Source: a virus. From it: a DNA stretch of 44,971 bases. Shown piece by piece: positions 1 through 35,366 of this stretch. The DNA is taken from IMG/VR virus record IMGVR_UViG_3300001460_004689, positions 12,719 to 57,689 of that record. One strand, given 5' to 3'. The position numbers and the translations under genes are program-made. The notes beneath the pieces were generated by a model. The model did no database searches. It was not told the origin of the DNA and saw nothing but the letters and a program-made list of their open reading frames with translations. How positions within the stretch are numbered: the first letter of the stretch is position 1; every line of letters begins with the position of its first letter.

Positions 1-885
1 ATGGATTTTCGTTTTAGTAATCTTTGTAATATGAGTTGTAGAAGTTGTAGTCCTACATTTAGTACACAATGGTACGACGACTTTATGAAAAAGTTTGGCG
101 AAGTGCCCGACGATATTGCACCTCAAAAATTTATACAACTTAAAAACAAAAAAGGATTTGAGGAAGAACTTTGGCCCTACTTGGATACTGTTGAGGAAGT
201 TTACTGGGCAGGCGGTGAGCCGCTTGTAACTGATATGCATTGGAAAATTATGAACTATTGGATTGAGACCAACAGAGCTCATGAAGTAAATGTTTTGTAT
301 ACAACCAACTTTAGTCAGCTTACTTACAAAAGACAAAATGTATTAGACTTATGGAAAAAATTTAAAAGTGTAGAATGTACAGCAAGTTTAGATGGTATGG
401 GAAGTCGTGCTGAATATATTAGAAAAGGCACAGTATGGAGTGACATAGTTGCTAATAGACAACTAATGATGGAACAAACTCCTAACATTAATTTTGATAT
501 TACACCAACAGTAAGTTGTATGAACGTATATCATTTACCAGACTTTCACGAAGATTGGGTAAACAAAGGATTACTTAAAGTAGGACAAATGCGTATCAAC
601 AACTTACTAGATCCTGATTACTTTTGTATGCAAGTATTGCCTAAGACATTCAAAGATAAAATTACAGCTAAATGGGAACAGCATATTCATTGGGTTCAAA
701 ACCATCCTCAATATGATTCAGGACAAAACTTTGTTCGCAGTGCAGAAGGTATGCTTAATTTTTTACACAGCGAAGATCGCAGTGACTTATTAGAAAAAAC
801 TATTCATCAGCTTGAAGAATGGGATCCTATTAGACATGAAGATTGGCGTGTAGCAATACCTGAATTAGCAGAGGCACTAGCATGA
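1..885 (+). CDS. N-twitch radical SAM protein, 5'-truncated by window edge
   Basis: Radical SAM enzyme that would reductively cleave S-adenosylmethionine to a 5'-deoxyadenosyl radical; substrate unknown. The visible part begins at the strand that carries the cluster motif CNMSCRSC (CxxxCxxC, residues 9-16), followed by AGGEP near residue 70-74. Homologues elsewhere in this window have about 110-140 residues before this motif, holding an extra Cys-rich twitch domain, so the ATG at base 1 is almost certainly internal and the N-terminal domain lies outside the window. The stop overlaps the next start as ATGA. The radical SAM assignment is firm; the twitch assignment rests on similarity of the core and C-terminal part to the paralogues. 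Confidence 0.85.
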   Translation: MDFRFSNLCNMSCRSCSPTFSTQWYDDFMKKFGEVPDDIAPQKFIQLKNKKGFEEELWPYLDTVEEVYWAGGEPLVTDMHWKIMNYWIETNRAHEVNVLYTTNFSQLTYKRQNVLDLWKKFKSVECTASLDGMGSRAEYIRKGTVWSDIVANRQLMMEQTPNINFDITPTVSCMNVYHLPDFHEDWVNKGLLKVGQMRINNLLDPDYFCMQVLPKTFKDKITAKWEQHIHWVQNHPQYDSGQNFVRSAEGMLNFLHSEDRSDLLEKTIHQLEEWDPIRHEDWRVAIPELAEALA

Positions 886-2159
886 GTAAAACTTTTTGCT
901 TACATCCTTTTGTAAATTTAAACAGCAATACTGAAGGCAGTGTGAAGTTGTGTTGTAGCATTACAGAAAACATACATGCAAAAAATACCGACGGTAGCGA
1001 ATTTAATTTTGGCACCAACAGTATAGAAGAGATTTGGTATAGTGATTATATGGTAGATATAAGATCACAATTACTAAAAGGTGAAAAGCCTAAAGCGTGT
1101 GATGTATGTTGGCGTTTAGAAGATTTAGGAATACAAAGCAGTAGACAAAGTGCTTTTACTGAATACAACGATATCGGACTAAGGCGTGATAGTAGTATGC
1201 ACAGTAGACCTCCATTGCCAAACAGTTTAGAACTGAGATTGGGTAATTTTTGCAATTTAAGATGTAATAGCTGTTGGAGTCTAAGCAGTGATAGAATACA
1301 TGATGAGCGTATGAAAATATTAGATACAGATCATAGTTTACCTGGTTGGATTCGTGACGAATGGACAAAAGAAATTAACATGGCAAGTGCTAGTAACATG
1401 AATTGGTGGCAAAGTAAAGACTTTGACAATACAATACAAAAACTTGCTCCAACACTTAAAAGACTTTATTTGACTGGAGGCGAGCCAACACTTATACGGC
1501 GCAATATAGAAATAATGAATATAATACTCCGCAGTGGCAATGATGAATGTTATGTTGCACTAACAACAAACTTAACACATTGGAACAAAGATTTTTACGA
1601 TACACTTACTCAGTTTAAAAACGGAGAAGTGCAGATCAGTATAGACAGTGTGTATGATAGAAACGAATATATCAGATTCCCAACTAAATGGGATCATGTA
1701 GAAAAGAACATAAACAAACTGTGGTATAAACTTCCCCATACATGGAAAATAAAACATTATACTGTATTACAAAATTATAATTATGATGATATTCCACAAA
1801 TTTTAGATTGGGTTGTACAGTTTAAAAATAATCACAAAGAGCAAAACTTACTTTATATATGGTCTCCCATAGTGTTAGATAATCCCCCGTACTTAGATAT
1901 TCGTATAGTAGATAAACAAGTAAGACAAGAAGCCGCTGATAGACTTAAAAATTATGATCCTCAATACGATAACTTAAACTTATATTGGAATCATGGAGTA
2001 GAACAAGCAATTAAGTTATTAGAATCTGATGCAATGGAAGAAAAAAAGAGACAAAAGCTACTGAGTAGATTTAGAGAATTTAACGATACTATGGACCGCA
2101 ATAGAAATACAAACTGGATTAGTACATTTCCTAATATTGCCGCAAAGGTGTTAGTATGA
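882..2159 (+). CDS. N-terminal-twitch radical SAM protein
   Basis: 425 aa. N-terminal auxiliary Cys domain: FCLHPF (C6), LCC (C24/C25) and CDVCW (C73, C76), a layout normally seen in C-terminal SPASM/twitch domains but here placed first. The radical SAM core follows, with CNLRCNSC (C124, C128, C131) and TGGEPT. The start is the ATG of an ATGA overlap with the upstream gene, and its own stop overlaps the next start the same way, so translation is probably coupled. The core cluster binds SAM and the N-terminal one may bind a second 4Fe-4S cluster; substrate and product are unknown. Strongly paralogous in architecture to ten other genes in this window. Confidence 0.88.
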   Translation: MSKTFCLHPFVNLNSNTEGSVKLCCSITENIHAKNTDGSEFNFGTNSIEEIWYSDYMVDIRSQLLKGEKPKACDVCWRLEDLGIQSSRQSAFTEYNDIGLRRDSSMHSRPPLPNSLELRLGNFCNLRCNSCWSLSSDRIHDERMKILDTDHSLPGWIRDEWTKEINMASASNMNWWQSKDFDNTIQKLAPTLKRLYLTGGEPTLIRRNIEIMNIILRSGNDECYVALTTNLTHWNKDFYDTLTQFKNGEVQISIDSVYDRNEYIRFPTKWDHVEKNINKLWYKLPHTWKIKHYTVLQNYNYDDIPQILDWVVQFKNNHKEQNLLYIWSPIVLDNPPYLDIRIVDKQVRQEAADRLKNYDPQYDNLNLYWNHGVEQAIKLLESDAMEEKKRQKLLSRFREFNDTMDRNRNTNWISTFPNIAAKVLV

Positions 2160-3163
2160 ATCAACTAATAAAAATAGAACAAGCAGGTGATCCGTTTGTT
2201 AATATTACATGGCAAGTAAGCAACTTGTGTAACTTTCGTTGTACCTACTGTAATGAATACAACTGGAATGGCAGTAATTTAAACTTAGATGTTGAAGCTA
2301 TAAAAGCAGGATTGACCAAACTGATTGACTATGAACTTGCTAGAGGATATACAAGACTAAAAGTATTCTTTAGTGGAGGCGAACCTTGCTATTGGAAACC
2401 TCTTACTAAAGTAATGGATCATATATTAGCAAGCGGAATGAGTGAAGTCAAGTTTGCAGTAAACACAAATTTAAGCAGTAAACTAAAATGGTGGGAAAAG
2501 AATGTACACTACTTTGATGACGTAGTAGCAAGCTATCATCCAGAGTTTGTAGACAGTGATCACTATTTGGAAATATACAAATACCTAAGTGATAAAGTAA
2601 ATTACTTGTGTGGTCGTATGATGATGCATGAGCCAACATGGGATCAAGTAATAGATTTTAGCAAACGTATAAAGCAAGAGATGAAAGATGAAAACTGGCG
2701 TATTGAATACGTTCCGATATTTGAAGAACTAAGTCACACTACTCGACCATACAATTACAAAAATCCAGAACATAAAAAGTTTTTAGAAACTACAAACTTA
2801 GAACAAGATATAAAGTTTGGTGTACCTGCTAAAGCTGAAGGCATGGCAAGTGTTGAAGTATATGATGATGGATCAGTACAGCCTATTAATTGTAATAGAC
2901 TAGTAGCAGAAAGTCGCAATTACTTCAAAGGATGGAAATGTTTGATACCAATGGAAAGTATTTTTATTAACTGTGAAGGTAAAATAGATATGGGTAGTTG
3001 TGGTGTTATGCCTCAGGTAGGAAACTTGTACGATCCTAATTTACAGTTAGATTTGCCAGAAAGTGTGATATGTCCAAAAAGTCACTGTCACTGTGGTACA
3101 GACATTTATATAACAAAATACAAGGATAGAAATTATGGAACAACTAGTACAGCAATACTTTGA
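2156..3163 (+). CDS. Radical SAM protein with C-terminal Cys-rich domain
   Basis: 335 aa. The radical SAM motif CNFRCTYC is near the N-terminus (C25, C29, C32), followed by SGGEP near residue 74. There is no N-terminal twitch domain; instead Cys residues cluster at the C-terminus (INCEG, GSCG, ICPKSHCHCG), which suggests a SPASM-like auxiliary cluster in the usual position. It therefore belongs to a different subgroup from its neighbours, related in layout to the proteins at 25958-26929 and 35363-36475. Start is the ATG of an ATGA overlap. Role unknown; it sits inside a run of N-twitch paralogues and may act on the same substrate. Confidence 0.85.
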   Translation: MNQLIKIEQAGDPFVNITWQVSNLCNFRCTYCNEYNWNGSNLNLDVEAIKAGLTKLIDYELARGYTRLKVFFSGGEPCYWKPLTKVMDHILASGMSEVKFAVNTNLSSKLKWWEKNVHYFDDVVASYHPEFVDSDHYLEIYKYLSDKVNYLCGRMMMHEPTWDQVIDFSKRIKQEMKDENWRIEYVPIFEELSHTTRPYNYKNPEHKKFLETTNLEQDIKFGVPAKAEGMASVEVYDDGSVQPINCNRLVAESRNYFKGWKCLIPMESIFINCEGKIDMGSCGVMPQVGNLYDPNLQLDLPESVICPKSHCHCGTDIYITKYKDRNYGTTSTAIL

Positions 3164-3455
3164 TGCATGGAATGCAAACAGCGTAGAACAACTAAGACCT
3201 TTACTGCATGATGCAGTAACACTAACAGATTGGGAAATTAGTGAAAGTGGACTAGAAGCAGTTATCAGTGCTAATCAAAAAATATTTGATGCAGTACCAG
3301 GAATACATGTTACTGTACACGATATGGCTACAAGTACAAATCAAGTTATGGCACAAATAACAGTGCATGTCAACGAACAAGAACAATTATCAGTTATTGA
3401 CGTACTAACTATTAGTAACGACAAAATAACAAGTATCAAGGCATATAAAAAATAA
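3135..3455 (+). CDS. SnoaL/NTF2-like small protein
   Basis: 106 aa. The sequence begins with the typical helix of the NTF2-like superfamily (VQQYFDAWNANSVEQL), then LLHDAVTLTDW, and ends with strands such as DVLTISNDKITSIKAYKK. SnoaL-like proteins of this size are cone-shaped folds that bind hydrophobic or ring-shaped ligands; some are cyclases or isomerases, others only bind. No catalytic residues can be assigned from sequence alone. It overlaps the upstream radical SAM gene by 29 bp and its TAA overlaps the next ATG (TAATG), so it is embedded in the radical SAM operon and may process or bind a product. Confidence 0.75.
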   Translation: MEQLVQQYFDAWNANSVEQLRPLLHDAVTLTDWEISESGLEAVISANQKIFDAVPGIHVTVHDMATSTNQVMAQITVHVNEQEQLSVIDVLTISNDKITSIKAYKK

Positions 3456-14257: not shown

Positions 14258-14277
14258 CATTAACAGAGCATATAATT

Positions 14278-18129: not shown

Positions 18130-18154
18130 TAACTATGTACTTAATGGAGTTAAA

Positions 18155-22172: not shown

Positions 22173-23247
22173 CTACGAAGATGTGCGTATGGTGCATTTG
22201 GAAATTACGCAAAAGTGTCAAGCGGCATGTCCTATGTGTGACCGTAATGAAAATGGCGGAGTAGACAATCGCCATATAGATAATAGTGAACTAAGTTTAC
22301 AAGACTGTCAAGCAATCTTTACACCCGCATTTATTCAACAACTCACCGGAATGTTTATGTGTGGCAACTTAGGTGATCCTATAGTAGCCAAAGATACACT
22401 AGAGGTATTCAAATACTTTAGACAATACAACTCAGAGATGTGGCTAAGTATGAATACTAATGCTGGAGCAAAAGATGTTAAATGGTGGCAAACACTTGCT
22501 AAAACAATTGGTAGACAAGGTGCCGTTATATTCTCAGTTGACGGTCTTAGCGACACTAATCATTTGTATAGGCAAAATGTTGTCTGGGCTAATGTAGAAC
22601 GCAACATGCGAGCATTCATTGATGCAGGTGGCAGAGCTCGTTGGGACTATATTATATTTGGACACAACGAACATCAGGTTGAAGAAGCCGAAGCACTCTC
22701 TAAACAATGGGGTGTAGAACGTTTCCAAAAGAAAAAGTCAGCACGTTTCTTTAGTGCTAAAAGTGTTAGTAAAGACAGTCATCAAGCACAGAATCGTAAA
22801 GGTGTTGAAACACAACTGATAGAAAAACCTAAACAGTTAGGCAATCAAAACTTAGCATTGTTAAAGCAAAAAGAAATAGCCAAAACTTATGGCGGTATGA
22901 AGAATTATTATGATAAATGTTCAATCAAATGCAAAGTAGCAGAAGAAAAAAACATCTTTATTACAGCAGAAGGCTTGCTTATGCCTTGCTGTTGGGCCGC
23001 TGGACGTATGTACAAATGGTGGCATCAAGATCCTAGAGTAGAACAAATATGGGATTTTATCGATAGAGCTGGTGGCAAACAAGGTATTGATGTAATAAAC
23101 AATGACTTACAACAAGTAATGCAAGGATCCTTGCTTAAAGATATCGAAAAAAGTTGGGACTTACCTAGCGTAGAGCAAGGAAAACTAGGAGTATGTGCTA
23201 TGAAGTGCGGCACGGAGTTTGATCCGTTTGCAGAGCAATTCAATTAG
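22165..23247 (+). CDS. Radical SAM/SPASM-type protein
   Basis: 360 aa. HLEITQKCQAACPMC carries the cluster Cys (C18, C22, C25) close to the N-terminus. In place of GGEP it has CGNLGDPI, a variant seen in some radical SAM/SPASM proteins. FSVDGLSDTNHLYR is the typical strand-5 region. The C-terminal third has many cysteines (KCSIKCK, MPCCWAAG, VCAMKCG) fitting a SPASM domain with auxiliary 4Fe-4S clusters. It differs from the N-twitch paralogues and from the other three non-N-twitch enzymes. Substrate unknown. Last gene before a 15-bp gap containing a promoter-like site. Confidence 0.85.
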   Translation: MYNYEDVRMVHLEITQKCQAACPMCDRNENGGVDNRHIDNSELSLQDCQAIFTPAFIQQLTGMFMCGNLGDPIVAKDTLEVFKYFRQYNSEMWLSMNTNAGAKDVKWWQTLAKTIGRQGAVIFSVDGLSDTNHLYRQNVVWANVERNMRAFIDAGGRARWDYIIFGHNEHQVEEAEALSKQWGVERFQKKKSARFFSAKSVSKDSHQAQNRKGVETQLIEKPKQLGNQNLALLKQKEIAKTYGGMKNYYDKCSIKCKVAEEKNIFITAEGLLMPCCWAAGRMYKWWHQDPRVEQIWDFIDRAGGKQGIDVINNDLQQVMQGSLLKDIEKSWDLPSVEQGKLGVCAMKCGTEFDPFAEQFN

Positions 23248-23249
23248 CA

Positions 23250-24669: not shown

Positions 24670-25961
24670 AGAAGTTAGATCCTAACGAAAAGTGGTCAGA
24701 AGAAAAAGATCCACGTAATTATAGACAAGGTGATGCTATACCAGAAGGTGATCCTGTGTGTATTGTGCCGTGGACTACTATTTGTCTGAGTGCAAACGGC
24801 AACATAAAACCTTGTTGTGCTTACGATGGACAATATGTTGAAAAGAGAGAACATTTTAATTTCTACGACGGTGATACATTAGAAGATGCACATGAAGGAT
24901 TTGAATGGTTAAGACAAGCATTTGTTAATAAAGAAAAACCTATACAGTGTAATCAGTGTTGGAAGAATGAACGCACACTCAGCAACAGTAGACGCAGTTG
25001 GATGTACGATAAGATTAAACACAAGCCACAAAGCTATCCGGTTAAATCACCTTTAAAATTAAAACATATGGATCTTAACTTTGGTAATACCTGTAATTTA
25101 AAATGTAGACACTGTGGCAGTTGGGGCAGTACTAATTGGTTCAAAGAAGATATAAAATTAAATAGTATTAATAAAAAATTTAAAAGAGCAGTGAACCATG
25201 GCATGGTCAGAGATGTTGATCCTAATTATTGGATTGAGAGACAACACTACTTTAAAGATATGGAACGCATAGACTTTAAAGGTGGTGAACCTTTTATGCA
25301 ACAAGGACATTATGATGTACTAAGAATGTTAATAGATAACGGCAGTGCAAAGAATGTAGACTTGGGGTATGTAACCAATGGAACAAAGAACCCTGCGGAA
25401 CTTGAAGAACTGTGGCCTTACTTTAAAAAAGTAATATTGAATATAAGTGTAGAAACTAGCAAGCCCGGATTGTACGAATATTTCCGAGGTGGAAAAATAC
25501 AAACAATAGAACAATTAGAAAAGAGTGTCTATTGGTTTGATCAATTTGACAATGTCAAAGGACAATTTGCTATTGCTATTAGTACATATAATATGTTTGA
25601 TTTGCAAGAACTAGGTGAATGGGTTGAAAAGGTAACAGCAAATACAAGATCATTTAAAACACTGTTTGCTAATAGAACCAGTGATCATAAAAATCGTTAT
25701 GAAAGACCTAATAACTTTAGTAGTTTAGTAACAACACCTGCTTACTTGGATCCTAATAATATGCCTCCGCATATGAAACAAAAAGTATTAGAGCGTTGGG
25801 ATAAAAATTATCACAGTATGGATCATCTCAGAGACGCAATGCACAGAACTGAGTACGATCCCGAGCAATGGGAACTATTCAAACAATACACCAGAGAACT
25901 AGATCGTATCAGAGGTGAAAGTGTATTGGATCATATACCCGAACTGGTAGGTGAATTATGA
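24666..25961 (+). CDS. N-terminal-twitch radical SAM protein
   Basis: 431 aa with an N-terminal extension of about 28 residues before the first Cys. Auxiliary domain: VCIVPWTT (C32), KPCCAY (C50/C51), QCNQCWKNE. Radical SAM core: CNLKCRHC (C143, C147, C150), then KGGEPFM. The region after the core motif has LNFGNT before it and GSWGSTNWF after, parallel to the paralogues. ATGA overlaps at both ends suggest strict translational coupling with the radical SAM genes on each side. Confidence 0.88.
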   Translation: MKKLDPNEKWSEEKDPRNYRQGDAIPEGDPVCIVPWTTICLSANGNIKPCCAYDGQYVEKREHFNFYDGDTLEDAHEGFEWLRQAFVNKEKPIQCNQCWKNERTLSNSRRSWMYDKIKHKPQSYPVKSPLKLKHMDLNFGNTCNLKCRHCGSWGSTNWFKEDIKLNSINKKFKRAVNHGMVRDVDPNYWIERQHYFKDMERIDFKGGEPFMQQGHYDVLRMLIDNGSAKNVDLGYVTNGTKNPAELEELWPYFKKVILNISVETSKPGLYEYFRGGKIQTIEQLEKSVYWFDQFDNVKGQFAIAISTYNMFDLQELGEWVEKVTANTRSFKTLFANRTSDHKNRYERPNNFSSLVTTPAYLDPNNMPPHMKQKVLERWDKNYHSMDHLRDAMHRTEYDPEQWELFKQYTRELDRIRGESVLDHIPELVGEL

Positions 25962-26929
25962 AACTAATTAGGGTAGAACACAGTGCTAAAAAATATAAAC
26001 AATGGGTACGCATTGAATGGAACATGGGTAGACGTTGTAACTTTGATTGCAGTTATTGTGGTAGAGATTTGCATGATAATACTAGCAAGCACTTTCCTTA
26101 TGAAAAGTTTGAATATACCATAAGCACACTGAGAGAATTTTACAGTGACAAACAAATACGCATGAGTTTAACAGGCGGGGAACCATTTGTACACCCACGC
26201 ATATTAGATATATTAAAACTATTTCCCAAGTACGGAGTAGAAGAAGTTAGTACAATTACCAATGGAAGTTTACCTTTAAAGAAATATCAACAAGCATTAG
26301 AATATATTAATAATTTAATATTCAGTTGGCACTTTGAATTTTTGCGTGTGGATCATATGAAATCAGTATTAACTGAATTACCCAACAACAAAGTAAAAGT
26401 TCATTTGATGTATTTGCCAGGCAGACTAGAAGAGATACATGATGTAGTTGAGTGGCTCAAAGACAATGGTATTAAATTTAATATAAGGCGCATTAGACCA
26501 ATGACCAACACAGCTGGTGAGTTTAATCCTCCCGGTGCTAGTGGTATGCAGTTTGAAGGAATACAGTTTGGAGGAGCCGAAGGATACTACAGTCAAGCAG
26601 AACTAGACTATATGGACAGCTTTAACAAAGCCGGTACAGCTGGTGTAAATTGTGAATTGTTTACCAAAGAAGAACAATGGTTGGACAATGTTAATACACT
26701 AACCAAAAACAAATGGAATACATTTAAAAAATGGAAGTGTATGGCTGGTATTGAAACACTTATGATAGACAATGACGGAAGTGTGTATAGAGCAACATGT
26801 AAACAAGGTGGCGTGTTAGGTAATATTGAAACTGGATTCACACTTGAAAATGATCCTGTTATATGTGCAAAACAATGGTGCAACTGTGCCGCAGATTTAA
26901 ACACAACAAAATGGTTGGAAACAGCATGA
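25958..26929 (+). CDS. Radical SAM protein with C-terminal Cys-rich domain
   Basis: 323 aa. The cluster motif CNFDCSYC is near the N-terminus (C27, C31, C34), with LTGGEPFVHP. At the C-terminus are MAGIETLMIDNDGSVYRATCKQ, then LGNIETGF and a final CAKQWCNCAAD, a SPASM-like set of cysteines. The LGNIETGF segment also occurs in the protein at 35363-36475, so the two are close paralogues. Start overlaps the previous stop (ATGA) and its stop overlaps the CHCC gene start. Substrate unknown. Confidence 0.85.
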   Translation: MKLIRVEHSAKKYKQWVRIEWNMGRRCNFDCSYCGRDLHDNTSKHFPYEKFEYTISTLREFYSDKQIRMSLTGGEPFVHPRILDILKLFPKYGVEEVSTITNGSLPLKKYQQALEYINNLIFSWHFEFLRVDHMKSVLTELPNNKVKVHLMYLPGRLEEIHDVVEWLKDNGIKFNIRRIRPMTNTAGEFNPPGASGMQFEGIQFGGAEGYYSQAELDYMDSFNKAGTAGVNCELFTKEEQWLDNVNTLTKNKWNTFKKWKCMAGIETLMIDNDGSVYRATCKQGGVLGNIETGFTLENDPVICAKQWCNCAADLNTTKWLETA

Positions 26930-27105
26930 CAAATAATGCATGGCAAATTCCAGGTTATGAAGAAGTAATCGTTTACAGTGATACTGATAGAGTAAAGTGC
27001 AGTGGAGAGAACTTGGATCATCCATTGGTTTATTATACTATACCTGAGGGAGGTGAAGTTGTTTGTGGTTATTGCGATATAATTTTTAGGAAGCGTGATG
27101 ACTGA
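26926..27105 (+). CDS. CHCC-type zinc-ribbon protein
   Basis: 59 aa from the ATG at 26926 (ATGA overlap); a longer frame upstream is only read-through of the radical SAM gene. The sequence has RVKCSGENLDHPLVYYTIPEGGEVVCGYCDIIF, matching the C-x-H-x-C-x2-C zinc site of the zf-CHCC family, related to the complex I subunit NDUFS6. Small free-standing versions probably bind zinc. Being enclosed between radical SAM genes, it might be a structural or regulatory accessory of those enzymes; that is inference. Confidence 0.8.
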   Translation: MTNNAWQIPGYEEVIVYSDTDRVKCSGENLDHPLVYYTIPEGGEVVCGYCDIIFRKRDD

Positions 27106-28279
27106 CACATTTTGCGTATTACCATTTACACATCTTAGCACAAGACCCGATGGTTCGATTACTCCTTGCTGTCGTAGTAGAGATACACTAGGACACATCA
27201 GCAACATGACGTTTGAACAAGCATGGAACAGTGATCGTCAACAGCAATTAAGAAAAGATTTATTAATAGGTGTGCGTAACAAACACTGTTTTCAGTGTTG
27301 GGATATGGAAGATCAAGGTTCAGTTAGTATGCGACAAAGCATGAACAAGACCAGACAACACATGATCCCTAGTAAATGCACACAAGAGATGCCATTTGAA
27401 GTACCAGTACTTGAATTAAAGATGAGTAACTTGTGTAACTTTAGGTGCAGAACATGCAAGCCTGATCTAAGCACAACCTGGCTCAAAGACTGGAATGCAG
27501 TTAAACATGAATATGAAAGTCACGGACTAACAAATGACACAAAGCGTCAAACAAACTTTGACAATGACCAGTTCGTAGAAGATATTGTAAGGCTAGCACC
27601 CACTATTGAAATAGTAGAGTTTGCAGGCGGTGAGCCACTTATGGATCCATTGCACTACAAAGTGCTAGAAGCATTAGAACCTTTCGCAAGTAATATTACA
27701 GTTAAGTATAGCACAAATCTCAGCAAAGTCAAGTTCGGAAAATTTGATACTATAGCCAGTTGGGCAAAGTTTAAAGCTGTTGATCTCAGTCTCAGTATAG
27801 ATGGATACCCTGAGCTAAACAACTATATAAGAACTGAGTCAGACACTGATGTTCTAGCAAAAAACTTACAGCTTGTCAAGAGCGAATTAAAAGAAAAATA
27901 TGTGGGTAGAGCGGCACTGTGCTACAGTGCTTGGAATGTTTTTGGGTTACCTGAAAGTTATGAATACTTTGAACATGTATTAGATACTCCTGTACATGGT
28001 AACATAGCATGGGATCCTATATTCATTAATCCACAAGTATTGCCCAAAGAGCTAAAGCAAAAAGCTACACTAAAATATAAAAAATATTTAAATACTGTAG
28101 AGCCCAGAGGTGAACGTAATAAACGTATACATAGATTTATAAATCAAAATATGAACTTTTTAAATGACAAAGATCAAAGCCAACACTTTGAACAGTTTAT
28201 ACGTTTTACAAAAACACTTGACCGTACAAGAAGTACTAGCATGATTGAAGTTATACCGGAGTTTGCTAATTATGTCTGA
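27098..28279 (+). CDS. N-terminal-twitch radical SAM protein
   Basis: 393 aa from ATG at 27098, preceded by AGGAAG (27088-27093); a GTG one codon upstream is possible. Auxiliary domain: DTFCVLPF (C6), TPCC (C24/C25), HCFQCW (C64, C67) then MEDQGSVSMRQS. Radical SAM core: NLCNFRCRTC (C113, C117, C120), then AGGEPLM. It is a compact, typical member of the family and serves as a good reference for the domain order. C-terminal helix LDRTRSTSMIEVIPEF. Overlaps its neighbours by 8 bp on each side. Confidence 0.9.
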   Translation: MTDTFCVLPFTHLSTRPDGSITPCCRSRDTLGHISNMTFEQAWNSDRQQQLRKDLLIGVRNKHCFQCWDMEDQGSVSMRQSMNKTRQHMIPSKCTQEMPFEVPVLELKMSNLCNFRCRTCKPDLSTTWLKDWNAVKHEYESHGLTNDTKRQTNFDNDQFVEDIVRLAPTIEIVEFAGGEPLMDPLHYKVLEALEPFASNITVKYSTNLSKVKFGKFDTIASWAKFKAVDLSLSIDGYPELNNYIRTESDTDVLAKNLQLVKSELKEKYVGRAALCYSAWNVFGLPESYEYFEHVLDTPVHGNIAWDPIFINPQVLPKELKQKATLKYKKYLNTVEPRGERNKRIHRFINQNMNFLNDKDQSQHFEQFIRFTKTLDRTRSTSMIEVIPEFANYV

Positions 28280-29582
28280 CGCACAAACTATAGCAGATCA
28301 GTACCGTGTTAGTCCAGACGAATGGATATGTATACATCCATGGAGTCATCTTGCTATTACACCCAAGGGAGGAGTTAGACTGTGTTGTCACACACAAAAA
28401 GCACCCGACGTTGGAAATTTAAATGAAAATACTGTTGAAGAAATCTTTAATGGTGAATCAATGCGGCGAGTTAGAAGACAGATGCTAAACAATCAGGTTC
28501 CTAAGGAATGCGGTAAATGTGCTAGAATAGAAGATATGAATGCTAGGTCACCTAGAATAAGAGAACACACAAGATTGTACAGCGAAAAAATAAGACAGGA
28601 TTATATCTATAAAACCAAACCAGATGGTACAGCAGATTATAATTTAAAGTATTGGGACGTTAGATTTAGTAATGTGTGTAACATGGCTTGTGTTATGTGT
28701 AGCAGTGAATGGAGTAGCATGTGGATCAAACATGCAAAAGACTATACTGAATCTTATGATGCAACTACAATAGACAATGATCCTAATTTAAATTATTTTA
28801 AAAGTCAATACAACGATTTAGGAAAAACAAAAATAGTTAACGAGCCTAGTTTTCAATGGATAGATGACTATATTGATCAAGTTGAAAACATATACTTTGC
28901 AGGTGGAGAACCAATGATAATGCCCAGTCACTGGTATATATTAGAAAAACTACACAGTGCAAAGCGTTTTAATGTTAAAGTAAAATACAATAGTAACATG
29001 CTCAAACTGGGTCATCAAGGCAAACATGCACTAGACTATTGGTGTGATTGGAATTATGGTAAGCTAGCAGTCGAAAGCAGTATAGATGAAACAGGCGAAC
29101 GTGCAGAATGGATACGCTATGGCACTGAATGGCAAACTGTACAACAAAATATCATAACTGTCAGAGATGCAGGTGTTAAGATACAACCTATCGTAAGTGT
29201 CGCAGTTTATAATATCGTCAGACTGCCTGCACTATTAGAAGAATTATATGATTTATTTAAACACAAAATAGCTATTAATTTAGTTTATAATCCTGAATGG
29301 CGTTTAGAACTCATTGATAGATCACAACGACTTGCACTAATTGATCCATTAAAAAAGTTAGAACATCTAATAGCTGATAGAAATCAAATGGATATAGTTT
29401 ATCACAAGCTAAAAGAACCTCAAGTTGAAGTAACAGACGGCGGTATGAAAATGCTATTACCAAGACTTGCATTGTTGGATACACATAGAAACAAAAATAG
29501 TATGCAGTTGTTTCCTGAACTAGAACAAATAAATCAACGCATGGGCGGACTATACGAGCAGAAGAGGCAACAGTATGAGTGA
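28272..29582 (+). CDS. N-terminal-twitch radical SAM protein
   Basis: 436 aa from ATG at 28272; a longer TTG-started frame lies entirely within the previous gene. Auxiliary domain: WICIHPW (C20), RLCC (C38/C39), ECGKCARIED. Radical SAM core: NVCNMACVMC (C136, C140, C143) and AGGEPMI. It lacks the Trp after the last auxiliary Cys (CAR instead of CW), a small deviation. The C-terminal part ends with SMQLFPELEQINQRMGG, parallel to the family C-terminus. Substrate unknown. Confidence 0.88.
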   Translation: MSDAQTIADQYRVSPDEWICIHPWSHLAITPKGGVRLCCHTQKAPDVGNLNENTVEEIFNGESMRRVRRQMLNNQVPKECGKCARIEDMNARSPRIREHTRLYSEKIRQDYIYKTKPDGTADYNLKYWDVRFSNVCNMACVMCSSEWSSMWIKHAKDYTESYDATTIDNDPNLNYFKSQYNDLGKTKIVNEPSFQWIDDYIDQVENIYFAGGEPMIMPSHWYILEKLHSAKRFNVKVKYNSNMLKLGHQGKHALDYWCDWNYGKLAVESSIDETGERAEWIRYGTEWQTVQQNIITVRDAGVKIQPIVSVAVYNIVRLPALLEELYDLFKHKIAINLVYNPEWRLELIDRSQRLALIDPLKKLEHLIADRNQMDIVYHKLKEPQVEVTDGGMKMLLPRLALLDTHRNKNSMQLFPELEQINQRMGGLYEQKRQQYE

Positions 29583-30732
29583 TACTTTTTGCATATTGCC
29601 CTGGATGCATCTAGCTACAAACGCAAGCGGTAACTTGCGAGTGTGTTGTAATAGTACACCTGGTGAAAACTTTATACTAAAGCCTGACGGAACGCCATAC
29701 AAACTGTACAAAGACGATATGAAAGAAGCGTGGAACAGCGAAACATATGCAACTATTCGTAAACAGTTGTTGAACAATGAACGTCCTGGCATGTGTACCC
29801 GTTGCTTCAGAGAAGAGGACAGCGGTATCCGCAGTGCTAGACAAGCATGGAATCACAAGTGGCAACAAGATGAGAACTATAACGAATCCGCCCCTTTCGA
29901 TATAAAATACGTTGATTTACGTCTCAGCAACTTGTGTAATTTAAAATGTAGAATGTGTAATCCATATGCTAGTAACATGTGGGTAAAGGAATGGGCCAGT
30001 GTAGAACATGCACTAGAACCCAGTGAGTATGAACGTCTCAGTCGCATGGATTGGCCCGAAAGAGAAAAGACCTGGGAAAACTTATTTGCTATTGCACACA
30101 CTGTTGAAGAGATATACTTAACAGGAGGTGAGCCCACTGTTATTAAAGAACAAAAAAGATTATTAGATTATTTTATTGACAATGGCACAGCAAAGGATAT
30201 ACGCTTAAAGTATAATACCAATTTGGTCAAAGTGCCCGCTTGGTTGTTGGAAAAATGGCGCCACTTTAAACGTGTACAGCTTAATTGTAGTATTGATGCT
30301 ACGGGCGATTTGGATCACTACATACGTTTTCCAAGCAAGTGGTCCACTGTACTAAAGAACTTTGAATATATTAGAACACTAGACAATGCTGATATAGAAA
30401 TACACTGTACAGTGCAGATGTATAATATACTTAGATTAAATGATTTCATCGAATGGGCAAAACCATATGAGCATAAAATATATTTTAATATATTAAATCA
30501 TCCTGAATATTTGAATATAAGAGTGTTACCCAACAAACTTAAACAGCAAGCACACGAACAGTTAACGCCTTATGTAGACTTACCCAAAGTACAGGGTATA
30601 ATTGATTACATGTGGCACGAAGATTGGAGTAATCGTTTAAGTAAATTCTACAAGTATACGCACACACTGGACGCTAGCAGAGATGAAAACTTGTATAACA
30701 TAGTACCGGAGTTTGAACATTATGAAAAATAA
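29575..30732 (+). CDS. N-terminal-twitch radical SAM protein
   Basis: 385 aa. Auxiliary domain: DTFCILPW (C6), RVCC (C24/C25), MCTRCFREEDSGIRSARQ (C74, C77). Radical SAM core: NLCNLKCRMC (C121, C125, C128), then TGGEPTV. The segment LDASRDENLYNIVPEFEHYE closes the protein as in its paralogues. It overlaps the upstream gene by 8 bp and the downstream one by 11 bp. Together with the proteins at 27098 and 882 it shows the family consensus most clearly. Substrate unknown. Confidence 0.9.
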   Translation: MSDTFCILPWMHLATNASGNLRVCCNSTPGENFILKPDGTPYKLYKDDMKEAWNSETYATIRKQLLNNERPGMCTRCFREEDSGIRSARQAWNHKWQQDENYNESAPFDIKYVDLRLSNLCNLKCRMCNPYASNMWVKEWASVEHALEPSEYERLSRMDWPEREKTWENLFAIAHTVEEIYLTGGEPTVIKEQKRLLDYFIDNGTAKDIRLKYNTNLVKVPAWLLEKWRHFKRVQLNCSIDATGDLDHYIRFPSKWSTVLKNFEYIRTLDNADIEIHCTVQMYNILRLNDFIEWAKPYEHKIYFNILNHPEYLNIRVLPNKLKQQAHEQLTPYVDLPKVQGIIDYMWHEDWSNRLSKFYKYTHTLDASRDENLYNIVPEFEHYEK

Positions 30733-31954
30733 ATTCTTTTGTCCGTTTCCTTGGAATCATTTGATGTTTAAAAGTAATGGCAGAGTACAAGCCTGTTGTG
30801 AAACATATGAACATCAATTTGATCCTGGTGGTGCCACCATAGCAGAAATAGCAAATCATCCCATAATCAAACAACTCAGATTAGATATACTTGACCCTGA
30901 CAAAGTACCTGGCATGTGTTGGAAGTGTGAAAATAGAGAACAGGTGCTGGGTACTAGTGTGAGAATGAATACAGCACTAATGCATAAACATTGGGATGAA
31001 GAGTCAGCTAAACAAGCTACCAATGCGGATGGCAGTATGGACAACTTTCATTTAGAGCATTTAGATATACGTTGGAGTAACTTGTGCAATTACAAATGTA
31101 GGTTTTGTCATCTGGGCAGTAGCAATCTTTGGCTCAAAGAAACACAGATGTTAGGACAGTATGTATCAGATGCATACAATCCTAAAACCGGTATTGCTGA
31201 ATACGATATGGATTGGGAAGATCTAAAAACACACTTGCCTTATGTACGCTATGTTAAACTAGCAGGAGGCGAACCAGCAATTATGCCAGGAACTTATCAA
31301 CTGTTAGAAGAGTTGATACGAATAGGTAATACTAAAAAAGCCAAATTAACGCTAATTACCAATGCTACAACTCTGCAGTATGGAAAATACGATTTGATTG
31401 GATTGATGAGTGAGTTTGATATTTGTAAAGTACAAATGAGCATGGAGGGCATGGGTATAAGACATGAATGGGCTAGAAGTGGTAAAAAAGACTGGGACAC
31501 TATTGCTGAAAATATACAACAGTTTGAAAAATGGTCCAATGTAACATATGATAAATTAAATCAGAATAATGACAGTAACACTCGAAAATTAAATTTTCAT
31601 ACAGGTATAAGTTGGATGAACATGTATCATTTAGCAGACTTTGTACTAGCATATCCAAATATTAAATTTGTTTTTAATCTAGTAACTCAGCCTAAAGAAA
31701 TGAGTATGTTACATTTTGATGTAAAAGAATTAAAACGTTGTAGCGACTATTATACAGAACTATTGCAAACTGTACACACTCCAATGGTTACAGATCATTT
31801 ACAACAACTTAAAAACGCAATAGACAACAGTATTAAAAAAACAGACCAATCAGGTAATGTGAATAACTTTAGAATGATGCAGGATAAGTTAGATCACTTT
31901 AGAAATCAAAGTTTCACAACAGCATATCCAGAGTGGGCTCACTTGTATGCATAA
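30722..31954 (+). CDS. N-terminal-twitch radical SAM protein
   Basis: 410 aa from ATG at 30722; an in-frame TTG nine bases upstream is less likely. Auxiliary domain: FFCPFPWNHL (C7), QACC (C25/C26), MCWKCENRE (C66, C69). Radical SAM core: NLCNYKCRFC (C122, C126, C129) and AGGEPAI. The strand-5 region reads VQMSMEGMGIRHEWAR where most paralogues have a SIDxxG sequence, so the substrate pocket may differ. Overlaps the next start by 8 bp. Confidence 0.88.
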   Translation: MKNKFFCPFPWNHLMFKSNGRVQACCETYEHQFDPGGATIAEIANHPIIKQLRLDILDPDKVPGMCWKCENREQVLGTSVRMNTALMHKHWDEESAKQATNADGSMDNFHLEHLDIRWSNLCNYKCRFCHLGSSNLWLKETQMLGQYVSDAYNPKTGIAEYDMDWEDLKTHLPYVRYVKLAGGEPAIMPGTYQLLEELIRIGNTKKAKLTLITNATTLQYGKYDLIGLMSEFDICKVQMSMEGMGIRHEWARSGKKDWDTIAENIQQFEKWSNVTYDKLNQNNDSNTRKLNFHTGISWMNMYHLADFVLAYPNIKFVFNLVTQPKEMSMLHFDVKELKRCSDYYTELLQTVHTPMVTDHLQQLKNAIDNSIKKTDQSGNVNNFRMMQDKLDHFRNQSFTTAYPEWAHLYA

Positions 31955-33134
31955 AGATACATATTGTCCAATGCCATTTGTAACACTAGCAGTCAATCCA
32001 AACAATTGGCTAACAAGATGTATGATGAGTAATCACAACATGGGTACCATTGAACATGATAGTTGGAGCAATGACAAGTTTACCGCTCTGCGTACTGATA
32101 TGCTTGCGGGTAAGTGGGACCAAGAAGGTTGTAAAAGCTGTTGGTTCAAAGAAACAAATGGTCAAAAAAGTAGACGCAACAGATGGATAGACAGTGAACT
32201 AAAGTATATGGGTGCAGAAAATGTTTATGCACAAAATTTAAGCGTAGATAGAAATACTATAAAACATCTATATATGAACTTTAATAATATATGTAATTTT
32301 AAATGTAGAATGTGTGGACCGCATTACAGCAATGCTTGGTTACCTGATTGGAAAAAAATGCAAGCATGGGAAATGGATGAATCATCAAACAAATCTTATA
32401 CTAAACAGTTACAAAATGCTGGTGATAAACATCTACAAGTAAAACAACAAATAGATGTAGATAAATTTTTACATGAGTTTGGTCCTGAACTTGGTGAACT
32501 GCATGGTATTTGGGTAACTGGCGGCGAACCTTTTATGGATAATAGCGTGTTTGATTTTTTTGAAAAGTTAGAACAGTACTGTGATCCTCAACAACTCAAA
32601 GTATTAATTACAACAAATGCCAGCAAACTAGATGTACACAAACTTGAACAACTACGAGGATTCAAACGACTACAAATTCATGTTAGTATAGATGCTACCG
32701 GAGATCTATACAAATATATGCGTGGTTACAACTATACATGGGAACAAGTTGACCATAAGATAAAACAGTTGCACCAACATCAAAAACAATATAATTTTAA
32801 ATTAAGTTTAAATGGAACATATCAACTACACAACATGCTTAACTTGGAACAGTTTTACAATTGGTGCTTACAGTATGTTGATTTAGAGTATATTGAAATG
32901 CGTGTGCTGAGTGGACCTAAATGGCTACAAGCAAGACATGCTACTGATCGAATTAAATTACAAGCACTAGCACAACTGGATAGATTAAGAGAAAGATTTC
33001 CAAAACATCAATACTTTGATGACATATCCAAAGAAATTAATGCTCAAGCAGATCTTAAATATCAAAAAAAGTTTGTAACTTGGAATAAAAAGCTAGATGA
33101 GATAAGAGGAGAGACATATGATTATAACTGGTAA
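31947..33134 (+). CDS. N-terminal-twitch radical SAM protein with altered CC pair
   Basis: 395 aa. Auxiliary domain: TYCPMPF (C7), then TRCMMSN (C25 followed by Met, where paralogues have CC), and GCKSCWFKE (C62, C65). Four cysteines remain, enough for one 4Fe-4S cluster, which suggests that the second Cys of the usual CC pair is not essential. Radical SAM core: NICNFKCRMC (C116, C120, C123), then TGGEPFM. Ends LDEIRGETYDYNW. Overlaps the SDR gene by 17 bp. Confidence 0.87.
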   Translation: MHKDTYCPMPFVTLAVNPNNWLTRCMMSNHNMGTIEHDSWSNDKFTALRTDMLAGKWDQEGCKSCWFKETNGQKSRRNRWIDSELKYMGAENVYAQNLSVDRNTIKHLYMNFNNICNFKCRMCGPHYSNAWLPDWKKMQAWEMDESSNKSYTKQLQNAGDKHLQVKQQIDVDKFLHEFGPELGELHGIWVTGGEPFMDNSVFDFFEKLEQYCDPQQLKVLITTNASKLDVHKLEQLRGFKRLQIHVSIDATGDLYKYMRGYNYTWEQVDHKIKQLHQHQKQYNFKLSLNGTYQLHNMLNLEQFYNWCLQYVDLEYIEMRVLSGPKWLQARHATDRIKLQALAQLDRLRERFPKHQYFDDISKEINAQADLKYQKKFVTWNKKLDEIRGETYDYNW

Positions 33135-33666
33135 TCCAAAACAAGGAGTAGCACAAGCACTATATAAATTATACCCTACAGCAGAATATGTAAGTAGAGA
33201 TACAGGACTAGACCTAACTAATACAGATCATATATTTGAATTTGCAAATATGTGTATTAAACATGATGTAATCATATTAAACAGTGCATTATGGCGCTTT
33301 CATCAAACTATCCTACTGGATATAGTATACAAGGCACTTAGAACAGCCAAAAGCGAAGCACATATTGTGTGTATTGGCAGTACTACTGATAGAACTAGCA
33401 AAGGAACAGCTTGGTTATACAATGCTGAAAAGAAAGCACTTAGAGATTATGCGAACAGTTTAGGACTAGTAGGTGTATGGCACAGTGGTCCAAAAGTAAG
33501 TTATATCAGCTTTGGCACACTCAGTAACAATCAACACAAGCACCCTGACAGGGTGTGTATGGATATAGATGTAGCTGTGAGCTACATAAAGTGGTTGATA
33601 GATCAACCCAAACATGTTACAATAAACGAGATAAGCATTGATCCGATGCAGGCGAGGCAAGAATGA
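33118..33666 (+). CDS. Short-chain dehydrogenase-like protein
   Basis: 182 aa with AGGAGAG upstream of the ATG. N-terminal MIITGNPKQGVAQALYKLY fits a degenerate SDR TGxxxGxG nucleotide loop. VIILNSALW occupies the NNAG position, CIGSTTD supplies Ser, and WLYNAEKKAL is the YxxxK pair. Shorter than classical SDRs (~250 aa). Related to the protein at 36477-36971. Likely an NAD(P)H oxidoreductase or a nucleotide-binding relative; substrate unknown. Sits between radical SAM and nucleosidase genes with overlaps on both sides. Confidence 0.65.
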   Translation: MIITGNPKQGVAQALYKLYPTAEYVSRDTGLDLTNTDHIFEFANMCIKHDVIILNSALWRFHQTILLDIVYKALRTAKSEAHIVCIGSTTDRTSKGTAWLYNAEKKALRDYANSLGLVGVWHSGPKVSYISFGTLSNNQHKHPDRVCMDIDVAVSYIKWLIDQPKHVTINEISIDPMQARQE

Positions 33667-34211
33667 TAACAATATGTGTAGCTCTGGAAGCTGAACTACC
33701 CGATTTTAAAATGAATGGATATACAGTAATATATACTGGAGTAGGCAAAGTACAAGCGGCTACTGCACTTGCAAAAAGTCTATGTCATTTTCATAAACCA
33801 TTTGAAATATGGAATTACGGTACCGCAGGAGGTGTAAGTGGTATTAGTGGACTACATGAAGTTGGTGCATTTTTACAGCGTGATATGATGGCAGAGCCAC
33901 AAGCACCCAGAGGCAGTATTCCTTTTAGTGAACCATTATTGGGTGAAATACAAACGTCAACACAAGGTATACGTTGTGGTACGGGAGATAGTTTTGTTAT
34001 GTCAGCTGACCCGTGGTTTGAACAACAAAACATAGATTGTGTAGATATGGAAGGCTGGGCATTGGCTTATGTAGCACAACAATATAATATTCCATTTAGA
34101 AGTTTTAAATATATTAGTGATATGGCAGACGAAAATGCTATGGAAGACTGGACTACCAATGTAGCCAATGGTGCAGAAATCTTTACGGAGAAGGTAAGAA
34201 ATGGAGTCTAG
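33663..34211 (+). CDS. 5'-methylthioadenosine/S-adenosylhomocysteine nucleosidase-like
   Basis: 182 aa, shorter than typical MTANs (~230 aa). GVGKVQAATALAKSL, YGTAGGVSG, VDMEGWALAYVA (substrate-binding Met-Glu, M129-E130) and YISDMADENA (catalytic-type Asp, D153) follow the order and signatures of the Pfs/MTAN purine nucleosidase family; an N-terminal Glu (E9 or E11) is also present. MTANs cleave adenine from SAH, methylthioadenosine and 5'-deoxyadenosine. The last is released by radical SAM enzymes and inhibits them, so placement between radical SAM genes makes functional sense. ATGA overlap at start; its 3' end overlaps the 50-aa gene. Confidence 0.82.
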   Translation: MITICVALEAELPDFKMNGYTVIYTGVGKVQAATALAKSLCHFHKPFEIWNYGTAGGVSGISGLHEVGAFLQRDMMAEPQAPRGSIPFSEPLLGEIQTSTQGIRCGTGDSFVMSADPWFEQQNIDCVDMEGWALAYVAQQYNIPFRSFKYISDMADENAMEDWTTNVANGAEIFTEKVRNGV

Positions 34212-34353
34212 TGAATACGAAAGCTGGAGTGTAAAAGAATTTTTAGAACACGAATTAAAAGGTGTTCGTGAATTATATATGGAAACAAAAGATCCTATGT
34301 TACCACATGTAATAGAATACTTGGAAAGAAGACTCAAAGGTAAAATAGGGTGA
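34201..34353 (+). CDS. Small acidic helical protein (50 aa)
   Basis: The ATG at 34201 is preceded by GGAG and AAGG (34187-34194), overlaps the nucleosidase by 11 bp, and the TGA at 34351 forms a GTGA junction with the next gene. The product begins MESSEYESWSVKEFLEHELK and ends IEYLERRLKGKIG, an amphipathic helical, Glu-rich sequence. It closes what would otherwise be a 138-bp gap. No family recognised. Confidence 0.65.
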   Translation: MESSEYESWSVKEFLEHELKGVRELYMETKDPMLPHVIEYLERRLKGKIG

Positions 34354-35366
34354 GATGTGGCTGGGCTGATAATATATTAGTTGTAGAAACTGACGGCTGG
34401 AGTAGACCATGCTGTGGAGAGCCTAGTGTGGGCAGTAGAATACAAAAACTGCAAGGAGCAACACCCTTGCAGTCAGCGTGGCTCGATCCTAAGTTAGTGT
34501 ACCTTAGACAACAATTACAACAAGGTTACAGTAAATTAACTGATCCGTGGTGTAGACGTTGTAAACAAGTAGAAGCAACAGGTAATAAAAGTTTACGCAC
34601 AGGACAAAAGATACTAGGCGATCCGGGTGAGTTGAAAGCATTGCAATTTAAATTAAGTAATACTTGTCAGTTAGCTTGTGGGCATTGTGGTGAAAGTTTA
34701 AGCAGTCAACATCACAAGTATACACATGGAGGCACTGGAGTTATTAGAGCAACTGACAACATTGATCCTATTATCAATGATGTGGCTACACTGTTACCAC
34801 AACTGGAATGGATTAAATTTACAGGAGGCGAACCTTGGCATGATAGAGACCATTGGCGTATACTAGAAGGCATTGAGCATTTGGATCGAAGTCATTGTGA
34901 ACTTCGCTACATAACAAATGCACTAAGTAAAGTAAAGCAAACACTGTGGCAAGGCTGGCGTAATGTTCAAATTGATATTAGTATAGATGGATTATTTGAT
35001 CGTTACGAATGGTTTAGACAAAATGCTAAATGGGACAGGCTGTACGAAAAATATAATTATTATGTAGACCAAGGTTATGATGTTAGTGTAAATTATTCAA
35101 TTACACCATGGACCATTGAAGATTATAGCGAAGCATGTGAAATGTTTACTAATATTAAATCAAATATTGTTACATATCCAAGCTCGTCAAATATAGCTAA
35201 TATACCCAGAGGTTTATTAGCACTACCTAAAAATACACCGGGATTAAATATGTTAAATGGAGATCAAAAAACATTGTCACAATTAAGGTCCTGGGCAGAA
35301 GGCTGGGATACGAGATGGAACCAATTGGGAAAATCTAAACAACTTTATCCTTGGTTAGTACAATGA
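34350..35366 (+). CDS. Short N-terminal-twitch radical SAM protein
   Basis: 338 aa from a GTG start (GTGA overlap). It is the shortest complete member: the first auxiliary Cys is at residue 3 (RCGWADN), then RPCC (C21/C22) and WCRRCKQVEATG (C68, C71). Radical SAM core: NTCQLACGHC (C106, C110, C113), TGGEPWH, then DISIDGLFDRYEW. It lacks the P-W/F after the first Cys that is conserved in its paralogues. A perfect 8-bp stem inverted repeat lies inside its 5' region (34449-34472). Ends in ATGA with the next gene. Substrate unknown. Confidence 0.86.
   Translation: MRCGWADNILVVETDGWSRPCCGEPSVGSRIQKLQGATPLQSAWLDPKLVYLRQQLQQGYSKLTDPWCRRCKQVEATGNKSLRTGQKILGDPGELKALQFKLSNTCQLACGHCGESLSSQHHKYTHGGTGVIRATDNIDPIINDVATLLPQLEWIKFTGGEPWHDRDHWRILEGIEHLDRSHCELRYITNALSKVKQTLWQGWRNVQIDISIDGLFDRYEWFRQNAKWDRLYEKYNYYVDQGYDVSVNYSITPWTIEDYSEACEMFTNIKSNIVTYPSSSNIANIPRGLLALPKNTPGLNMLNGDQKTLSQLRSWAEGWDTRWNQLGKSKQLYPWLVQ
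34449..34472 (+). other. Inverted repeat inside coding sequence
   Basis: CTGCAAGG and CCTTGCAG form a perfect 8-bp stem with an 8-base loop, 99 bases into the gene at 34350. No U-run follows, so it is not a rho-independent terminator. It could be a translational control hairpin or chance. Confidence 0.4.

What the first reader, a model, noticed from the sequence alone, without database searches (positions are those of the whole stretch)
1..35366. Tandem family of eleven N-terminal-twitch radical SAM enzymes, plus four more radical SAM enzymes
Eleven genes (1, 882, 3455, 23263, 24666, 27098, 28272, 29575, 30722, 31947, 34350) share one layout: C-x-x-P-W/F, then a CC pair, then C-x2-C(W), then a CxxxCxxC radical SAM core with GGEP. 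The twitch-like domain precedes the core, the reverse of the usual SPASM order. Four further radical SAM genes (2156, 22165, 25958, 35363) carry C-terminal Cys domains. Fifteen radical SAM genes in 45 kb is extreme. Tandem expansion with divergence suggests several related steps on one substrate, or a shifting set of substrates. No precursor peptide is evident.
Basis: partly seen in the sequence, partly recalled or inferred. Interest (0 to 1): 0.88.

Follow-up and report, generated by a model that had tools for sequence, protein, structure and literature searches.

The report
Phage island of eighteen radical-SAM enzymes
A marine bacterial virus carries a long row of related radical-forming enzymes, three of which also sit together in genomes of a group of predatory bacteria, which suggests a shared and still undescribed pathway that probably decorates surface sugars.

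Summary
The window lies in a 57.7-kb virus record with 18 radical-SAM genes: 14 with an N-terminal twitch-like four-Cys domain, 4 with C-terminal Cys. Of 10 N-twitch genes tested, 9 pass the cut-off of NCBIfam NF033640. The number is not extreme for this virus group: 18 records searched hold 9-25; phages with 11-12 are in print.

The copies are old lineages, not a fresh tandem expansion: all 14 resemble genes of other viruses more than each other, scatter over the whole tree, and those tested are under purifying selection.

New here: three enzymes (22165, 23263, 35363) form a trio that also occurs in Bdellovibrionota genomes at 41-67% identity. In 112 Bdellovibrionia genomes not used to find it, all 5 with the 23263-type carry the other two.

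The surroundings (nucleotide-sugar enzymes, 2OG oxygenases, a nucleosidase) resemble the host-recognition cluster of marine T4-like phages. Best reading: radical tailoring of a sugar or surface glycan; the substrate is inferred, and peptide modification remains a serious rival.

The parts
1..885 (+). N-twitch rSAM, 5' end cut by the window (whole gene L009 12344-13603, 419 aa, four N bases)
   Evidence: 375 bits to NF033640 in the record
882..2159 (+). N-twitch rSAM (NF033640)
   Evidence: 299.8 bits
2156..3163 (+). rSAM with C-terminal Cys cluster
   Evidence: PF04055; Cys list
3135..3455 (+). SnoaL-like protein
   Evidence: PF12680
3455..4681 (+). N-twitch rSAM
   Evidence: 291.6 bits
5810..13009 (+). 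nucleotide-sugar block: UDP-sugar dehydrogenase-like, C-methyltransferase, methyltransferase-like, NAD epimerase, DegT aminotransferase
12984..14260 (-). NAD epimerase and cupin, on the minus strand
15318..20094 (+). pentose-phosphate epimerase, NTP-transferase/kinase-like fusion (weak), SIS isomerase, kinase-like, cytidylyltransferase-like (just below cut-off), carbamoyltransferase N-domain
20220..20924 (+). glycosyltransferase-A-like protein, family A4, also in Bdellovibrionota loci
   Evidence: weak GT2 Pfam matches in 2 of 12 members
20908..21951 (+). methyltransferase-like protein, family A5, also in Bdellovibrionota loci
   Evidence: no PDB relative by sequence; the name rests on my reading of the alignment
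21948..22172 (+). conserved 74-aa helical protein
22165..23247 (+). core trio 1: rSAM with C-terminal twitch, GNLGDP in place of GGEP
23263..24669 (+). core trio 2: N-twitch rSAM
24666..25961 (+). N-twitch rSAM
25958..26929 (+). rSAM with C-terminal Cys cluster
27098..28279 (+). N-twitch rSAM
28272..29582 (+). N-twitch rSAM
29575..30732 (+). N-twitch rSAM
30722..31954 (+). N-twitch rSAM
31947..33134 (+). N-twitch rSAM without the CC pair
33663..34211 (+). nucleosidase of the MTA/SAH nucleosidase superfamily, may clear 5'-deoxyadenosine (inferred)
   Evidence: (below curated cut-offs)
34350..35366 (+). short N-twitch rSAM, below the family cut-off
35363..36475 (+). core trio 3: rSAM with C-terminal Cys, 58-67% identical to Bdellovibrionota proteins
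36968..41764 (+). 2OG-oxygenase block: two Asp/Arg-hydroxylase-family, a PLP-transferase-like (named from its Mosig relative), TauD, methyltransferase, FMN reductase, one unknown; relatives of six in Pelagibacter phage Mosig

Best explanation
The window is most of a host-recognition-cluster type island of a large, probably T4-like marine phage. Shown: 14 N-twitch and 4 C-type rSAM genes, open and, where tested, under purifying selection; a core trio (22165, 23263, 35363) present in related phages and in Bdellovibrionota genomes, there usually near a GT-A-like or a methyltransferase-like gene; the rest of the array turns over between sister phages. Inferred: the trio makes one conserved radical transformation on an activated sugar or glycan unit. 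The other N-twitch enzymes are exchangeable tailoring enzymes that, like sugar genes of O-antigen clusters, change the surface glycan that the phage displays or installs on its host. Each makes 5'-deoxyadenosyl radicals; the N-terminal twitch holds an auxiliary 4Fe-4S cluster; the nucleosidase at 33663 removes the spent 5'-deoxyadenosine.
For: Families and Cys layout. Selection. Trio: in 112 sampled Bdellovibrionia genomes that did not lead to it, 5 have the 23263-type, and all 5 also have the 35363-type (7 genomes) and the 22165-type (7); Fisher p 1.6e-7 for either pair. All three lie within 7 kb in 4 of these 5; in the fifth they are on two contigs. 24 of 33 records searched (31 virus records chosen for related arrays plus 2 Vibrio phages without it) carry the 35363-type. 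Sugar context: UDP-sugar dehydrogenase, DegT, epimerases, C-methyltransferase, carbamoyltransferase in the window; GT2 transferases, UDP-sugar dehydrogenase and Asp/Arg-hydroxylase-family oxygenases among 21 proteins chosen from the bacterial arrays, 10 of which had no Pfam match. Same sort of island in Pelagibacter phage Mosig between tail fibre genes and VrlC, described as host recognition cluster with LPS genes and rSAM cassettes in PMC7029224 (passages read). Campylobacter phage CP220 has rSAM genes beside an amidinotransferase and two NDP-sugar-transferase-like genes; that amidinotransferase has relatives in two Bdellovibrionia arrays and in L192. Structural neighbours of the core include the sugar enzymes BlsE (Z 9.0) and DesII (8.4), but RiPP maturases score the same.
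Against: No rSAM of the array tested matches a model of known chemistry above a curated cut-off. The structure search does not separate sugar from peptide enzymes. No named surface-polymer exporter or ligase was found in the 39 window proteins and 1 upstream protein scanned with Pfam. The sugar block 4608-18132 has no good match in G002-G004 although the core rSAM genes do, so sugar genes and core rSAM genes are separable. The trio in some Bdellovibrionota loci (L193, L195) has neither the GT-A-like nor the methyltransferase-like neighbour. The glycan role of such islands is itself an inference in the literature.
Confidence: 0.48

Rival explanations
1. The enzymes modify a peptide or protein, as RiPP or protein maturases do: the substrate is a virion protein or the conserved 74-aa protein encoded at 21948-22172.
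For: The 74-aa gene is followed by a 22165-type rSAM in 52 of 52 loci with at least 4 kb downstream, found by scanning for the small protein alone; the open frames overlap in 26 of them. Several of these loci are near-copies, so they are not independent. Closest structures include the peptide maturases SkfB, SuiB and CteB; SkfB is also the only PDB relative of the 23263-type by sequence. The arrays carry Asp/Arg-hydroxylase-family oxygenases.
Against: The 74-aa protein is predicted as a confident helical bundle (pLDDT 88) and is conserved along its whole length rather than in a core segment. No relative appears in the Bdellovibrionota loci, even among all frames of 25 aa or more. The methyltransferase-like gene upstream is nearly as tightly linked to it (75 of 80), so linkage alone does not mark a substrate. 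No peptidase or RiPP exporter was recognised in the proteins scanned.
Confidence: 0.27
2. The array makes a diffusible small molecule or cofactor that helps infection or predation.
For: Multi-enzyme array with kinase-like, nucleotidyltransferase-like, carbamoyltransferase and oxygenase genes; similar arrays in Bdellovibrionia.
Against: Position next to tail genes in the record and resemblance to the host recognition cluster; no NRPS, PKS or RiPP family over a curated cut-off in the proteins scanned.
Confidence: 0.12
3. The copies are selfish or decaying cassettes accumulated in a hypervariable island without function.
For: Content turns over between sister phages; rSAM cassettes differ between near relatives in PMC7029224 (passage).
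Against: dN/dS 0.03-0.24 in pairs with a usable dS, no internal stops in 17 of 17, invariant Cys sets, a trio conserved between viruses and bacteria.
Confidence: 0.04

Closest known systems
NCBIfam NF033640, N_Twi_rSAM (twitch domain-containing radical SAM protein)
   Same: Same full-length layout; 9 of 10 tested window genes exceed the cut-off.
   Different: The model names a layout, not a function; no paper in the library holds its accession or short name. Here 14 diverged members stand in one phage record.
Host recognition cluster of pelagimyophages (PMC7029224, passages read; Pelagibacter phage Mosig)
   Same: Island beside tail genes with sugar, 2OG-oxygenase, carbamoyltransferase and rSAM genes; eight window proteins match Mosig island proteins above 45 bits, TauD at 395.
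   Different: Mosig has 2 rSAM matches by PF04055 and no N-twitch match, three rSAM-like genes by annotation; its best relative of 22165 scores only 48 bits.
Campylobacter phages CP220/CPt10 (PMC2853527, passages read)
   Same: 11 and 12 rSAM proteins in one phage, with an amidinotransferase and NDP-sugar-transferase-like genes beside them in CP220.
   Different: None of CP220's rSAM genes reaches the N-twitch cut-off; best 30.9 bits.
T4-like TARA_ERS488813_N000010 (PMC5332604, one section read)
   Same: 12 rSAM genes in a marine T4-like genome of 183 kb.
   Different: Its genes were not available here, so kinship is untested; the paper reads them as part of Fe-S metabolism.
SPASM/twitch rSAM enzymes (CteB, SuiB, SkfB, anSME; BtrN recalled)
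   Same: Core fold, and an auxiliary-cluster motif C-x9-15-G-x4-C (motif recalled) followed by CxxC.
   Different: Auxiliary domain lies before, not after, the core.

Membership tests
NF033640 N_Twi_rSAM | whole-protein score over the curated cut-off of 170 bits | tested here: met
   9 of 10 window genes; 34350 fails with 142.5, so it is not filed as a member; in the record scan gene 1 and L009 7936 and 11064 also pass; L009 9389 was not among the listed rows
NF033640 N_Twi_rSAM | N-terminal four-Cys twitch-like domain before CxxxCxxC | tested here: met
   14 of 14
SPASM/twitch domain homology of the N-terminal region | profile similarity to a C-terminal twitch | tested here: met
   33.6 against at most 16.2 in 60 shuffles; not seen with 35363's C-terminus (11.6)
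SPASM/twitch enzymes | auxiliary 4Fe-4S cluster facing the SAM site | tested here: inconclusive
   model pLDDT 81 but residues 150-162, which hold the core Cys, are under 50
Host recognition cluster of marine T4-like myophages | variable island between VrlC and gp14 with tail fibre genes | tested here: inconclusive
   tail structural protein at the record's start and shared genes with Mosig; VrlC and gp14 were not searched for in this fragment
RiPP pathway | rSAM plus precursor peptide with leader and modified core | tested here: inconclusive
   74-aa ORF linked in 52 of 52 but predicted well folded and absent from the Bdellovibrionota loci
T4-like phage | gp23-type major capsid protein (PF07068) | tested here: inconclusive
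   absent from this fragment; present in 2 of 13 related virus records searched, many of them fragments

The most novel reading that the evidence does not exclude
Marine phages and predatory Bdellovibrionota share an undescribed three-enzyme radical-SAM pathway (22165-, 23263- and 35363-types, with GT-A-like and methyltransferase-like partners) that installs one specific modification on a surface glycan or protein. Around it each lineage stacks its own set of N-twitch enzymes, so the array acts as a combinatorial radical toolkit for changing surface chemistry in attack on Gram-negative cells.
Probability: 0.25. Interest if true: 0.86.

Novelty: new variant of a known kind. Interest (0 to 1): 0.63.

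Why it matters
Phages with a dozen rSAM genes have been in print since 2010 without a tested function that I found. A trio conserved between phages and Bdellovibrionota gives a fixed point: three defined enzymes with cellular carriers, so the pathway could be tested outside uncultured phages. It also offers many N-terminal-twitch enzymes of unknown chemistry.

Tried and rejected
Alignment A1 was too diverse for a collection scan; single proteins were used instead. RNA families were not searched. No tRNA in the window. PHROGs gave no family for the small protein, 20908, 20220, 4608, 14278, 41009 and 42214. PDB sequence searches with profiles of A4 and A5 found nothing up to E 1. Fold search of the small protein gave nothing under E 6. 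The Foldseek search with the 23263 model gave no match under E 0.001; VIA ranks BlsE, CteB, SuiB, SkfB and DesII within 1 Z. An hhalign run with a global-type option was repeated in local mode. The 35363-type has no match at E 1e-3 in 50,697 phage records, the small protein none at E 1, and the 23263-type only 3 weak ones. The idea that the 74-aa ORF is the trio's universal substrate was dropped because the Bdellovibrionota loci lack it; outside virus contigs it was seen only in L180, L181 and L185, MAG contigs with virus-like arrays. Recent phage-to-Bdellovibrionota transfer was considered; the 24-row tree puts the 9 Bdellovibrionota-type rows on one side (98/98) and 12 of 14 virus rows together weakly (82/89), so an old split fits better (two long virus rows, L058 and L065, fall elsewhere). 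A first co-occurrence test left out 5 discovery genomes (6 of 6, p 1.1e-8); checking showed that a sixth, G146, has the coordinates of locus L196 and so also led to the trio. Whether the Chloroflexi and Acidimicrobiaceae MAG contigs (L192, L194) are bacterial or viral was not settled. Papers: searches. No paper held 'N-terminal twitch' with 'radical SAM' or NF033640; 8 papers hold Bdellovibrio and radical SAM, seen as listing only, none about such arrays by title. The library is open-licence; most subscription papers are not held. Passages of PMC10470005 were read and not used.
Full report
WHAT IS THERE. The window is bases 12719-57689 of a 57,689-base virus record. The 15 reported genes are real, on the + strand and open. 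The record adds three N-twitch genes upstream and the start of gene 1, so it holds 18 rSAM genes, 14 N-twitch and 4 C-type. The window starts directly after an ambiguous base inside gene 1.

LAYOUT. In the 14-row alignment four N-terminal Cys and the three core Cys are invariant. NCBIfam calls the family N_Twi_rSAM, NF033640. The N-terminal Cys region is related to a twitch at the other end of a protein: its profile matches the C-terminal part of 22165 far above shuffled controls, with Cys on Cys in the longer, global-type alignment. Exceptions to the motif are listed in the observation check.

HOW UNUSUAL. Of 33 records searched with NF033640 (this one, 30 virus records chosen because they match two of its genes, and 2 Vibrio phages), all match and 32 exceed the cut-off, with 2-22 matches each (weak matches counted). 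Of 18 virus records searched with PF04055 all carry 9-25 rSAM matches. Campylobacter phages with 11-12 and a marine T4-like genome with 12 are in print. The number is therefore a trait of the group.

HISTORY. Identity to one copy taken as reference is 22-32%, and the closest own paralogue of each copy is 24-39% identical, while each of the 14 has a closer match elsewhere. Many of those are in the near-identical record G001. Leaving G001 aside the statement still holds for all 14, narrowly (about 2-6 points) for 11064, 12344, 9389, 7936 and 3455. In a 178-row FastTree the 14 span the whole tree. Sister record G002 keeps 22165, 23263, 25958, 27095, 29575, 30713, 31947 and 35363 at 57-91%; G002-G004, which may be fragments, show no good counterpart of 882, 3455, 28245 and 34350. 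Selection is purifying in the 14 of 18 rSAM genes tested: dN/dS 0.03-0.24, 0 in one near-identical pair.

THE TRIO. A scan of bacterial genome contigs with the 23263 family found 20 loci; 10 are Bdellovibrionota by title, at 53-61% identity, and L188 joins them in the tree. There the gene stands near 22165-type (41-45%) and 35363-type (58-67%) genes: all three lie within the fetched locus in 9 (L182, L183, L184, L186, L187, L189, L191, L193, L195). In L188 the third is about 20 kb off, and L196 ends too early. In a sample of 118 Bdellovibrionia genomes, 13 have the 35363-type, 11 the 23263-type and 13 a 22165-type above 500 bits (15 at the looser E-value); all 11 carry all three (thresholds chosen by me). 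Six of these genomes had led to the trio; among the other 112 it is 5 of 5. One array ends near secE, nusG, rplK, rplA and rplJ, so at least this one is chromosomal. 39 of the 118 genomes have N-twitch genes over the cut-off. The 35363-type is present in 24 of 33 records (31 virus records and 2 Vibrio phages); some of those lacking it are short or end near the array. The trio loci mostly come from metagenome-assembled genomes.

SURROUNDINGS. Window: nucleotide-sugar enzymes, carbamoyltransferase, 2OG oxygenases, FMN reductase. 33663 is a nucleosidase of the MTA/SAH superfamily, below the curated cut-offs but matching solved MTA/SAH nucleosidases at best E 1.8e-8; it occurs in array loci of two other contigs (G002, L180) and distantly in L194. 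That such enzymes relieve 5'-deoxyadenosine inhibition of rSAM enzymes is recalled knowledge. Bacterial arrays: GT2 transferases, UDP-sugar dehydrogenase, PP-loop protein, flavin oxidoreductase and Asp/Arg-hydroxylase-family oxygenases among the proteins chosen for Pfam; 10 of the first 20 had no match. The 2OG block and some sugar genes have relatives in the island of Pelagibacter phage Mosig, of the type described as host recognition cluster.

THE SMALL PROTEIN. The 74-aa ORF at 21948 has relatives in 48 further viral loci and in 226 stretches of a collection scan, of which the 80 best were kept. Of these 80, 52 have at least 4 kb downstream and all 52 carry a 22165-type rSAM there; the open frames overlap in 26. 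The upstream methyltransferase-like gene is present in 75 of 80. It has no match in 50,697 phage records. Among the bacterial-contig loci it occurs only in L180, L181 and L185, whose arrays are virus-like, and in no Bdellovibrionota locus. Model: helical bundle, no PDB match. It may be a partner of 22165 or merely part of the same core block.

MECHANISM. Shown: conserved enzymes, conserved trio, sugar-rich setting. Inferred: radical chemistry on sugars or glycans; auxiliary cluster in the twitch; clearance by the nucleosidase. Not shown: any substrate. Peptide modification stays a serious rival.

VERDICT. A real and striking array, ordinary for its group in number, of a named family without a function known to me. 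The new part is the trio shared with Bdellovibrionota, which makes an old puzzle testable.

Noticed in passing
window 21948-22172: 74-aa ORF conserved in 48 further viral loci of the first set and 226 stretches of a collection scan; in 52 of 52 kept loci with enough sequence it is followed by a 22165-type rSAM.
   Followed up: yes
window 33663-34211: Nucleosidase of the MTA/SAH superfamily inside the rSAM array, also in G002, L180 and distantly L194.
   Followed up: partly
window 19129-20094: Carbamoyltransferase of only 321 aa with the N-domain alone; the relative in L180 is 500 aa, so the C-terminal part seems lost here.
   Followed up: no
window 10811-13009: DegT aminotransferase with about 390 extra N-terminal residues without any Pfam match.
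   Followed up: no
window 15911-17326: Weak NTP-transferase and kinase-like matches in one protein, possibly a fused sugar-nucleotide activating enzyme.
   Followed up: no
L200, L201, L204, L205, L213, L214: Dense N-twitch rSAM arrays in Bdellovibrionota genomes; GT2 or oxygenase genes in some; L214's array lies near secE-nusG-rplK-rplA-rplJ.
   Followed up: partly
L201 9166-10242, L202 6990-8066, L192 4895-5956: Relatives of the amidinotransferase that stands in the rSAM cluster of Campylobacter phage CP220.
   Followed up: partly
L009 12628-12718: Four ambiguous bases in the record; the window begins right after the last one, cutting gene 1.
   Followed up: yes
L192, L194: rSAM-rich loci on contigs binned as Chloroflexi and Acidimicrobiaceae; bacterial or viral origin not settled.
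   Followed up: no
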